DNA of 64,000 nt from Allosalinactinospora lopnorensis (GTDB taxonomy: Bacteria > Actinomycetota > Actinomycetes > Streptosporangiales > Streptosporangiaceae), in contig NZ_LAJC01000019.1 in assembly GCF_000981225.1 (NCBI RefSeq), forward strand, positions 1 through 64,000, read 5' to 3'. The notes under the pieces are model-generated. The model did no database searches. It saw nothing but the letters and a program-made list of their open reading frames with translations, and was not told where the DNA came from. The first letter of the stretch is position 1. Every line of letters starts with the position of its first letter. A program made the position numbers and the translations under genes. This document shows positions 58,151 to 60,722 of the stretch, one piece after another.

Positions 58151-58333
58151 GGGCGGTGCCGTCCTTTCCGAACAGGATTCGGTCCTGCCAGGCTAGCGCC
58201 TTCCCCGGGGCCGGCCGAAGTCGGTTCGCTGGTGCCCTGACCGCGGGTGGCCGTCTTTGGCCAGACCCGATGGCACACAGCGACCTGGCGATTACCATCG
58301 CCGCACAACGCCCCCAAGCTCTGGGAGGCCCTC

Positions 58334-58453
58334 GTGGGCAAACATGACGACAATTCCCGCTGGGACGGCCGGAAGGACAAGCCCCCGCCTCCGCCCACCC
58401 CCAACGACGGGGGAAGCGGCGGCGGCAAGCACGAACGAGATGACGACAAGTGA
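58334..58453 (+). CDS. candidate RiPP precursor peptide (imiditide-type)
   Basis: This 39-residue, strongly charged peptide starts at GTG 58334 with GGGAGG five bases upstream. It begins VGKHDDNSRWDGRKDK, continues with five prolines, and ends in a Gly-rich then charged tail. It has two Asp-Gly sites, at 11-12 (WDGR) and 25-26 (NDGG), which favour aspartimide formation. There are no Cys, and Ser/Thr are few, so lanthionine chemistry is unlikely. Its TGA overlaps the methyltransferase GTG (GTGA), tying the two together. Known imiditides are aspartimide-bearing peptides made by a lone isoaspartyl-methyltransferase homologue; assignment to that class is inference from layout and the DG sites. 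Confidence 0.65.
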   Translation: MGKHDDNSRWDGRKDKPPPPPTPNDGGSGGGKHERDDDK

Positions 58454-59580
58454 CCGACGCCCGCCACCTTCGGTCCCGCCTCGCCGGGGAGGTCCCCCCA
58501 GCGTGGCGGGACACCTTCCTCGCCGTTCCACGCCACATGTTCATCCCCGACACGATCTGGATCCGAGGCGACGACAACCGCCCTGCCCCGCTGCGCCGGG
58601 CCGATGCCCCCCAAGCGTGGCTGGAGGCCTGCTACGCCGACGCTCCCGTAGCGGTGCAGCTCGACGACGGCGACGGCAGCGGGCGCGGCTACGTCTCCTC
58701 GACAGCGTCCATGCCGCGCGTGGTCGCGATGATGTTGGAAGCCGCCGACCTCGCACCCGGGCTCCGGGTCCTGGAAGTCGGTACCGGAACCGGCTACAAC
58801 GCTGCGCTCCTGGCGTCCCTGGTGGGGACGCGCAACGTCACCACGATCGAGATCGACGCTGGTCTGGCCGAGCGGGCCAGGATCGCCCTGCGACGAGCCG
58901 GATGGCCGGTGGAGACCATCACCGGCGACGGCGAAGAGGGACACCCGGCGGGCGCCCCCTATGACCGGATCCTGGCGACTGCCGCCGTCCAGACCGTCCC
59001 GCACGCGTGGGTGGAGCAGACCCGGCCGGGCGGGCTCGTCGTTACCCCGTTCGGTACGGCGTTCCACAGCGGCGCGCTGCTGCATCTGCTGGTCCACGAC
59101 GACGCGACAGCGTCCGGGCGCTTCGGCGGGGACACCGCATTCATGTGGACCCGTGCCCAGCGCACCCCGCACGGCGTCGTGGAGGACCGGGTGTTGCCCG
59201 AGCACGACTACGCCGAAACGACCACCGACCTGCACCCCTACGAGCCGATGGGCGACTTCGACGCCTCATTCGCGATCGGTGTCCGCGTGCCCGGGATGAA
59301 GTCCACCCTGGTCTACGACGATGACGACCCCGGAACACAGCGCTACACCGTCTACCTGATGGATCCCACTACGGGATCGTGGACCTCCTGGCGGATCACG
59401 CCGCAGGCACCGGCGTACCGAGTGTGCCAGCACGGGCCGCGCCGACTGTTCGACGAGCTGGCCGCGGCCTACGAGTGGTGGCGGGACCTGGGCCGCCCGG
59501 CGCACGACCGGTTCGGCCTGACGGTCACCGCCTCGGGGCAGCGGCTGTGGATGGACGACCCCGCGAACACGGTGGGATAA
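58450..59580 (+). CDS. protein-L-isoaspartate O-methyltransferase homologue with C-terminal extension (RiPP type)
   Basis: This 376-residue protein has an N-terminal methyltransferase domain: RDTFLAVPRHMFIPDTIW, the substrate loop SSTASMPRVVAM (83-94), the SAM motif VLEVGTGTGYNAALL (107-121) and ILATAAVQTVPHAWVEQ. About 150 extra residues follow (FMWTRAQRTPHGVVEDR through VTASGQRLWMDDP) that housekeeping Pcm lacks. Extended homologues of this kind act on graspetides, lanthipeptides or imiditides, methylating Asp so that it closes to aspartimide. No ATP-grasp or lanthionine synthetase gene is nearby, so a lone-methyltransferase system fits best. Confidence 0.85.
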   Translation: MTDARHLRSRLAGEVPPAWRDTFLAVPRHMFIPDTIWIRGDDNRPAPLRRADAPQAWLEACYADAPVAVQLDDGDGSGRGYVSSTASMPRVVAMMLEAADLAPGLRVLEVGTGTGYNAALLASLVGTRNVTTIEIDAGLAERARIALRRAGWPVETITGDGEEGHPAGAPYDRILATAAVQTVPHAWVEQTRPGGLVVTPFGTAFHSGALLHLLVHDDATASGRFGGDTAFMWTRAQRTPHGVVEDRVLPEHDYAETTTDLHPYEPMGDFDASFAIGVRVPGMKSTLVYDDDDPGTQRYTVYLMDPTTGSWTSWRITPQAPAYRVCQHGPRRLFDELAAAYEWWRDLGRPAHDRFGLTVTASGQRLWMDDPANTVG

Positions 59581-59623
59581 GAGCGCCGACCGGGCGTGGC
59601 GCCCTCGATTCTTTCGCGCGGGG

Positions 59624-59877
59624 CTACACCTCGCCCTGCTTGAGGCCGCGCAGGAAGGCCAGCCACTCGGGGCGGGGAGGGTGAGGTGCCCGTGGTCAGG
59701 GTTCTTGGAGTCGCGCAGAGCGTGGACGGGGGAACCGTCGAGGTGAGGACCGGCCTCGACGCATTCGCCACTGCGGCTGGGGCTGTAATTACTCTTACGC
59801 CAGCCGGCCTCGACGCATTCGCCATGGCGGTCTGGGCTGTAGCTGCTCTTTAACCAGGTGAACTGCTCGTGTCTCAT
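59624..59877 (-). pseudogene. DUF397 protein with internal duplication, frameshifted
   Basis: This is a small DUF397 protein of about 84 residues, the usual partner of Scr1-type XRE regulators and related to BldB. The frame starts at ATG 59877 (ATGA overlap with the XRE gene) and shows KSSYSPDRHGECVEAG, KSNYSPSRSGECVEAG and VHALRDSKNPDHGHLTLPA. The end PEWLAFLRGLKQGEV and a TAG at 59624 lie in another frame. One C missing from a C-run at about 59671-59676 explains this. The first half of the domain is repeated in tandem (18 residues), which is unusual for this family. Confidence 0.8.
59750..59824 (-). repeat. in-frame 54-base tandem duplication inside the DUF397 gene
   Basis: The 21-base string ccggcctcgacgcattcgcc-a occurs at 59750-59770 and again at 59804-59824, offset by 54 bases (18 codons). 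The flanking halves are similar but diverged. The duplicated protein unit is the SSYSP...GECVEAG segment. Confidence 0.8.
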
Positions 59878-60722
59878 GACAGTTCCTTCTCAATCGCGGC
59901 GATGAACGCCGTGGACTCGGCCGCATCCAGGCAGCTCGTCTCAAGGCGATCGTACTGACCGGCGAATCGAAGGACGTCATTCGCCTCCAGGAATATGCTT
60001 CCTGCCGCAGAGTCTATGTAGACGACCTCGGGGAACGGATCCGCCATCTTGATCAATGCGAATGAGCCATCGGTACCCGGATACTCGCCGACGCTGAACG
60101 GCAGCACTCGGATTTCGATGTTGGGCTTGGCGGCCTCCGTCAGTAGTCGTTGTAGTTGTTCGCATATGACCTGTGGCCCACCGACCGGACGACGCAGTGC
60201 TGCTTCATCCAGGATGAGCTGTATTTCGGTTGGGCTATCCCGAGTCAGGATCTCCTGACGGGCCATCCGGACACCGACCCAGCGCTCGATCTGTCGAGCT
60301 GAGGCATCCGGATCACTGATCCGGATCAGGCGTTCCGCGTATTCGCCGGTCTGGAGGAGACCGGGGATCACCAGGGGGTTGAAGATCCGTAGCCGCTCGG
60401 CCCGATCTTCCAGCCACACGTAGTTGATCATGGTGGTGCCCTGGTAGTAGCGCTCCCACCAGCCGGTTTCGGCGATCTCTTCGGCGAGTTGGAGCATCTG
60501 GGCACGCTGGCTGGGGCCGTCCACGCCGTAGAAGTTCATCAGCGCCGTCACCTCGGCTCGGGTGATGGGCCAGGTTCCCGCTTCGAACCGGCTAAGCGTC
60601 GAGGTGCTGCGTTGGATGTAGTCCGCGGGTTCCTTCAAGGTCATGCTGTTCTCTTCGCGCAGCTCCTTGAGCATCTTGCCCAGCCACTGGGCGCGAAGCG
60701 TCCCCTTCGACTTGGCTGCCAT
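59874..60722 (-). CDS. XRE-family regulator, Scr1/WhiJ type (helix-turn-helix plus DUF5753)
   Basis: This 282-residue protein has an N-terminal helix-turn-helix (about 10-65, LKELREENSMTLKEPADYIQ and STSTLSRFEAGTWP) and a C-terminal DUF5753 domain (about 95-275, with FNPLVIPGLLQTGEYAERLI and LPFSVGEYPGTDGSFALIKM). ATG 60722 has GAGGG upstream. It is coupled to the DUF397 gene by ATGA. Such pairs are common in filamentous actinomycetes and include developmental regulators. Here it may control the peptide locus, but adjacency is the only support. Confidence 0.9.
   Translation of the reverse strand: MAAKSKGTLRAQWLGKMLKELREENSMTLKEPADYIQRSTSTLSRFEAGTWPITRAEVTALMNFYGVDGPSQRAQMLQLAEEIAETGWWERYYQGTTMINYVWLEDRAERLRIFNPLVIPGLLQTGEYAERLIRISDPDASARQIERWVGVRMARQEILTRDSPTEIQLILDEAALRRPVGGPQVICEQLQRLLTEAAKPNIEIRVLPFSVGEYPGTDGSFALIKMADPFPEVVYIDSAAGSIFLEANDVLRFAGQYDRLETSCLDAAESTAFIAAIEKELS

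What the first reader, a model, noticed from the sequence alone, without database searches (positions are those of the whole stretch)
58334..60722. Candidate imiditide-type RiPP locus: DG-containing charged peptide coupled to an extended isoaspartyl methyltransferase
Seen: a 39-residue peptide gene with its own ribosome binding site, about half charged residues, five consecutive prolines and Asp-Gly at 11-12 and 25-26. Its stop overlaps the start of a 376-residue Pcm homologue that carries about 150 extra C-terminal residues. Known: extended Pcm homologues convert Asp to aspartimide in graspetides, some lanthipeptides and stand-alone imiditides. Inferred: with no ATP-grasp, LanM or protease gene present, this is a lone-methyltransferase peptide, modified most probably at D11 or D25. 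The exact peptide sequence and the XRE/DUF397 neighbour may define a new subgroup. Because the gene is under 150 bases, standard annotation would probably miss it.
Basis: partly seen in the sequence, partly recalled or inferred. Interest (0 to 1): 0.88.

Follow-up and report, generated by a model that had tools for sequence, protein, structure and literature searches.

The report
Two-gene imiditide (type I pamtide) locus
This stretch holds a tiny, highly charged peptide gene overlapping the start of a methyltransferase gene; relatives in many actinobacteria show it is a real member of a recently described peptide family (imiditides), in which one aspartate is bent into a ring, and they point to the eleventh residue as the one modified.

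Summary
[quoted passage not shown] The small gene is under selection as protein: among 343 genomes of the same family, 49 carry the related enzyme; 39 of 54 relative loci keep the peptide just upstream; close pairs mostly give dN/dS around 0.1; substitutions fall 106/73/329 on codon positions 1/2/3. It meets every testable definition of an imiditide/type I pamtide, a class reported in 2023 with over 1,400 clusters. So: a new member of a known kind, not a new kind.

Two refinements. (1) Asp11 is the only residue identical in all 39 aligned precursors (D25 in 24 of 39), so D11-G12 is the predicted aspartimide/isoAsp site. (2) The XRE/DUF397 neighbour does not define a subgroup: it is present at about half the related loci in varying order, also flanks other PAMT types (4 of 9 PAMT-like loci in this genome), and is already reported beside PAMT-containing graspetides. 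The association is still about eightfold above expectation and is the best lead. Product chemistry, processing, export and function are untested.

The parts
58323..58328 (+). ribosome-binding site GGGAGG of the precursor gene
   Evidence: sequence; relatives have similar purine-rich sites at the same place
58334..58453 (+). imiditide / type I pamtide precursor gene, 39 aa, GTG start
   Evidence: conserved upstream of related PAMTs, purifying selection
58364..58366 (+). codon of Asp11, predicted modified residue, followed by Gly12
   Evidence: only residue invariant in 39 of 39 aligned precursors, 13 of 13 representatives below 70% identity
58406..58408 (+). codon of Asp25, second Asp-Gly, judged less likely to be the site
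   Evidence: Asp in only 24 of 39 precursors
58450..59580 (+). PAMT (peptide L-aspartyl O-methyltransferase), 376 aa, start overlaps precursor stop (GTGA)
   Evidence: AlphaFold2 pLDDT 93.7; near full-length match to 1DL5
58774..58794 (+). SAM-binding motif EVGTGTG, residues 109-115
59212..59577 (+). C-terminal domain (about residues 255-376) with order strand-helix-four strands-helix
   Evidence: model secondary structure; same order as stated for PAMTs in PMC10787088
59479..59499 (+). WXXXGXP motif, WRDLGRP, residues 344-350
   Evidence: motif defined in PMC13001092
59624..59877 (-). DUF397 gene, two tandem N-terminal halves, reading frame broken near 59670; neighbour, not part of the minimal system
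59874..60722 (-). XRE regulator with DUF5753, overlaps the DUF397 start; possible regulator of the locus

Best explanation
The locus is a two-gene imiditide (type I pamtide) cluster. Shown here: a real, conserved 39-residue peptide gene overlapping the start of a PAMT gene. Inferred from characterised relatives: the PAMT binds the linear peptide through charged residues and its C-terminal domain, methylates the side chain of Asp11 with SAM, the backbone nitrogen of Gly12 displaces methanol to form an aspartimide (-18 Da), and this partly hydrolyses to isoAsp or Asp. Export, cleavage and biological role are unknown; no gene for them is linked.
For: Enzyme: PCMT/TIGR04188 match, SAM motif and WRDLGRP motif, confident model with C-terminal order strand-helix-four strands-helix; the PIMT with a C-terminal extension, T. 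maritima 1DL5, aligns over residues 7-371. Peptide: conserved upstream of 39 of 54 relatives, with overlap or short gap to the enzyme; dN 0.04-0.19 against dS 0.55 or more in the seven-member close group, substitutions 106/73/329 by codon position. Composition Gly 18%, Pro 15%, Asp 21% against 17, 17 and 10% for type I precursors (PMC10787088). Asp11 invariant, followed by Gly in 37 of 39. No ATP-grasp, Lan, protease or transporter among the neighbours scanned over 53.3-64 kb. Enzymes with this precursor type lie on one side of a branch (SH-aLRT 83) away from those with the other main precursor types.
Against: No chemistry was tested. The window peptide is near neutral (net -1, many relatives more acidic), whereas the review stresses strong positive charge in imiditides. 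Fourteen of 54 related enzymes lack an intact precursor nearby, some with only its tail left, so some PAMTs may act on something else or be decaying. Precursors in the alignment were picked by eye from candidate frames, though not by Asp11.
Confidence: 0.85

Rival explanations
1. Same system, but Asp25 (or both Asp11 and Asp25) is the modified residue.
For: Asp25-Gly26 sits a few residues before the Gly-rich KHER tail, as the PDGG site of another imiditide group does before GRHEK.
Against: Position 25 is Asp in 24 of 39 precursors and the whole stretch is missing or replaced in several that keep Asp11.
Confidence: 0.1
2. The enzyme is a protein-repair isoaspartyl methyltransferase (Pcm) and the small gene is an unrelated leader or regulatory peptide.
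For: The catalytic half is a PCMT domain matching repair enzymes.
Against: C-terminal PAMT domain and WXXXGXP motif; peptide and enzyme travel together in non-syntenic places: apart from XRE and DUF397, none of the window neighbours queried reappears at the 54 relative loci.
Confidence: 0.03
3. The locus is a graspetide or lanthipeptide maturation fragment whose primary enzyme is elsewhere.
For: Best NCBIfam name is the ATP-grasp-system methyltransferase TIGR04188, and this genome has a graspetide-like locus on contig C25.
Against: Below the family cutoff (313 of 380 bits); no such genes beside it; the precursor has no Cys and only three Ser/Thr; type I pamtide PAMTs act on linear peptides without a cyclase.
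Confidence: 0.02

Closest known systems
Imiditides / type I pamtides (NmaA-NmaM of Nonomuraea maritima, SpaA-SpaM of Streptomyces sparsogenes; PMC10787088, PMC13001092)
   Same: Two genes only; short Gly/Pro/Asp-rich charged precursor, conserved Asp near Gly/Pro, charged termini; PAMT with C-terminal domain and WXXXGXP.
   Different: Predicted site lies at residue 11, before the proline run, with only ten residues in front; NmaA tolerates loss of its first 20 residues and its modified Asp is followed by His. Peptide near neutral rather than strongly basic.
Cysimiditides / type II pamtides
   Same: Same enzyme family, same two-gene layout; also present in this genome (C41, likely C44).
   Different: Window peptide has no cysteine, so no zinc-binding CXXCXGXG pair.
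Graspimiditides (group 13 graspetides, TIGR04188)
   Same: Homologous methyltransferase; reported to co-occur with DUF397/DUF5753 (PMC13097080).
   Different: No ATP-grasp ligase; enzyme below the TIGR04188 cutoff.
Thermotoga maritima PIMT (1DL5)
   Same: Catalytic domain plus C-terminal extension, aligned over residues 7-371.
   Different: An isoaspartyl methyltransferase not described as RiPP-linked; 21-24% identity.

Membership tests
Imiditide / type I pamtide | precursor gene directly beside a PAMT gene, no other RiPP primary enzyme | tested here: met
Imiditide / type I pamtide | PAMT carries C-terminal domain over 100 aa with strand-helix-four strands-helix order | tested here: met
   against the description
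Imiditide / type I pamtide | WXXXGXP motif near the C-terminus | tested here: met
   WRDLGRP 344-350; definition
[quoted passage not shown]
   39 aa; Gly 18, Pro 15, Asp 21% (counted); Asp11 39/39; definition
Imiditide / type I pamtide | conserved charged residues at N and C termini of the precursor | tested here: met
   GKH at the start and KHER/KHEK near the end in most precursors (definition)
Imiditide / type I pamtide | enzyme converts one Asp to aspartimide/isoAsp in the linear precursor | not testable with these tools
   needs co-expression and mass spectrometry
Cysimiditide / type II pamtide | two CXXCXGXG motifs around the conserved Asp | tested here: not met
   no Cys in the peptide
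Graspimiditide | linked ATP-grasp ligase and TIGR04188 methyltransferase over cutoff | tested here: not met
   313 of 380 bits; no ATP-grasp gene among neighbours
XRE-DUF397 pair (Scr1/Scr2 type) | intact XRE (HTH + DUF5753) followed by intact DUF397 | tested here: not met
   XRE intact, DUF397 frame broken near 59670; a sequencing error cannot be excluded

The most novel reading that the evidence does not exclude
XRE-DUF397 pairs are the dedicated control circuit of PAMT-modified peptides in these actinobacteria, across imiditide, cysimiditide and graspetide types, with the modified peptide or its isoAsp form sensed by or acting on that circuit, so that imiditides would be internal signals rather than secreted products.
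Probability: 0.12. Interest if true: 0.65.

Novelty: new member of a known kind. Interest (0 to 1): 0.33.

Why it matters
Imiditides have no known function and few studied members. This locus supplies an aligned family of 39 short precursors with a single invariant Asp, which turns 'which Asp is modified and what recognises it' into a simple co-expression experiment. The strong statistical link between PAMT loci and XRE-DUF397 regulators gives a handle on when these clusters are expressed.

Tried and rejected
A scan of genome contigs with the enzyme as query found only two relatives; whole-genome searches were far better. Correlating peptide charge with the acidic loop of the enzyme gave nothing, and the loop could be extracted in only 10 loci (Spearman 0.18, p 0.63). 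The promoter scan found no sigma-70-like site; a terminator-like stem at 59592-59604 lies just after the enzyme, but such hits are expected by chance. XRE/DUF397 as a defining subgroup mark was rejected because DUF397 is absent from about half of the related loci. PDB matches barely cover the C-terminal domain except 1DL5; that is no sign of a new fold.

Full report
What is there. At 58334-58453 lies a 39-codon frame with a GTG start and a GGGAGG ribosome-binding site five bases upstream; its TGA overlaps the GTG of a 376-codon gene, 58450-59580. The peptide has Asp-Gly at 11-12 and 25-26, five prolines at 17-21, and 17 charged residues of 39. The enzyme matches PCMT (E 3e-33, residues 53-203) and, along almost its whole length, TIGR04188 with 313 bits, under that family's 380-bit cutoff. 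Upstream lie an AidB-like acyl-CoA dehydrogenase and a GlgX-like gene, downstream DUF397/XRE, CbiX, PAPS reductase and a sulfite/nitrite reductase; no RiPP primary enzyme, protease or transporter was found among those scanned.

Is the small gene real? Its open frame alone proves nothing in this GC-rich DNA: frame +1 is also open in 36 of 39 relatives. Conservation does. A search of 343 genomes of the same family found 49 with the enzyme at E below 1e-100, in 15 of 68 genera. I fetched 54 relative loci. Of these, 39 keep an intact peptide of the same design directly upstream, mostly starting M-G-K-H and mostly ending in KHER or KHEK plus a few residues (L105 and L106 carry the same peptide and are counted once in the alignment of 39, which includes the window). 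In the seven closest sequences dN is 0.04-0.19 while dS is 0.55 or more, and substitutions fall 106, 73 and 329 on codon positions one, two and three. Of the window neighbours queried, only XRE and DUF397 reappear at these loci, so the two genes travel as a cassette. In one genome three precursor-enzyme cassettes lie in a row (L080).

What is the enzyme? The AlphaFold2 model from a 52-sequence alignment is confident throughout (mean pLDDT 93.7, pTM 0.90). The catalytic half matches isoaspartyl methyltransferases (best Z 24). The one structure of that family matching residues 7-371 is T. maritima PIMT 1DL5, which has a C-terminal extension. After residue 255 the model runs strand, helix, four strands, helix, the order given for RiPP-associated PAMTs (PMC10787088). 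The WXXXGXP motif described for imiditide, graspimiditide and lassimiditide enzymes (PMC13001092) is WRDLGRP at 344-350, and the SAM motif is EVGTGTG at 109-115.

Which Asp? In the alignment of 39 precursors Asp11 is the only residue present in all; it is followed by Gly in 37 and Glu in two. After thinning to below 70% identity it is 13 of 13. Position 25 is Asp in 24 of 39, and some precursors lack that stretch entirely. Most other imiditide-like precursors in these genomes also carry an Asp-Gly (PDGG...; DGQ...HGGGGE; DGS...DPGKHEK). Enzymes with window-type precursors, together with two with odd precursors and some without, lie on one side of a branch with SH-aLRT 83 (quick tree). I therefore predict D11. 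Known mechanism (PMC10787088, PMC13001092): SAM-dependent methylation of Asp, spontaneous ring closure to aspartimide, hydrolysis mostly to isoAsp. These chemical steps are inferred here, not shown.

The regulator neighbour. The XRE gene overlaps the start of DUF397. The DUF397 frame in the window is broken near 59670: the N-terminal part reads in one frame and the C-terminal EWLAFLRGLKQGEV in another; a sequencing error cannot be excluded. In this genome 4 of 9 PAMT-like loci have a convergent DUF397-XRE pair immediately downstream, against about 0.5% expected per locus (P about 7e-8; approximate, from about 54 DUF397 genes and an assumed gene count). At relatives, 26 of 54 have DUF397 within about 4.5 kb where about 6% would be expected from genome density; relatives are not independent, so that probability should not be taken literally. 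The pair is not constant in place or direction and also accompanies other PAMT types; for group 13 graspetides the co-occurrence is already published (PMC13097080). XRE-DUF397 pairs regulate antibiotic production in Streptomyces (PMC10364602, PMC6262351; titles and abstracts). The association is real; what it does here is open.

Known or new? Imiditides, alias type I pamtides, were reported in 2023; 1,414 type I clusters were counted (PMC13001092). All testable defining features are met here. The early position of the site, before the proline run, and the near-neutral to acidic charge differ from what the review says of the studied members, but several conservation patterns were already noted in 2023, and I could not read the lists. 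New member of a known kind. Interest is moderate: solid, directly testable, not surprising.

Noticed in passing
window 59624-59877, minus strand: DUF397 gene has two tandem N-terminal halves and a frameshift near 59670 that separates its conserved C-terminal end.
   Followed up: partly
own genome contigs C63, C17, C56, C44, C41, C25, C27 (L130-L135, L001-L008): This genome carries at least eight PAMT-like genes: three with type I precursors (window included), at least one (C41, probably also C44) of zinc-ribbon type, one behind a graspetide-like ATP-grasp gene; several are damaged (in-frame TAG, internal deletion, frameshift).
   Followed up: partly
L134, right after the C44 enzyme: A frame starting MGKHGKEQDCGMCGGSGMATIVNDGKR lies downstream, not upstream, of its PAMT: a likely cysimiditide precursor in reversed gene order.
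   Followed up: no
L080 (G183 contig 70), relative positions 0 to +4700: Three tandem precursor-PAMT cassettes with three different precursor types, the middle enzyme apparently broken, followed by DUF397-XRE.
   Followed up: partly
L081, L088, L101, L111, L129: Decayed precursors: a frameshift in L081; elsewhere only the C-terminal tail remains in front of a PAMT, in L088 directly behind a DUF397 gene.
   Followed up: partly
many loci, XRE/DUF397: Strong statistical association of PAMT loci with XRE(DUF5753)-DUF397 pairs across precursor types; function unknown.
   Followed up: partly
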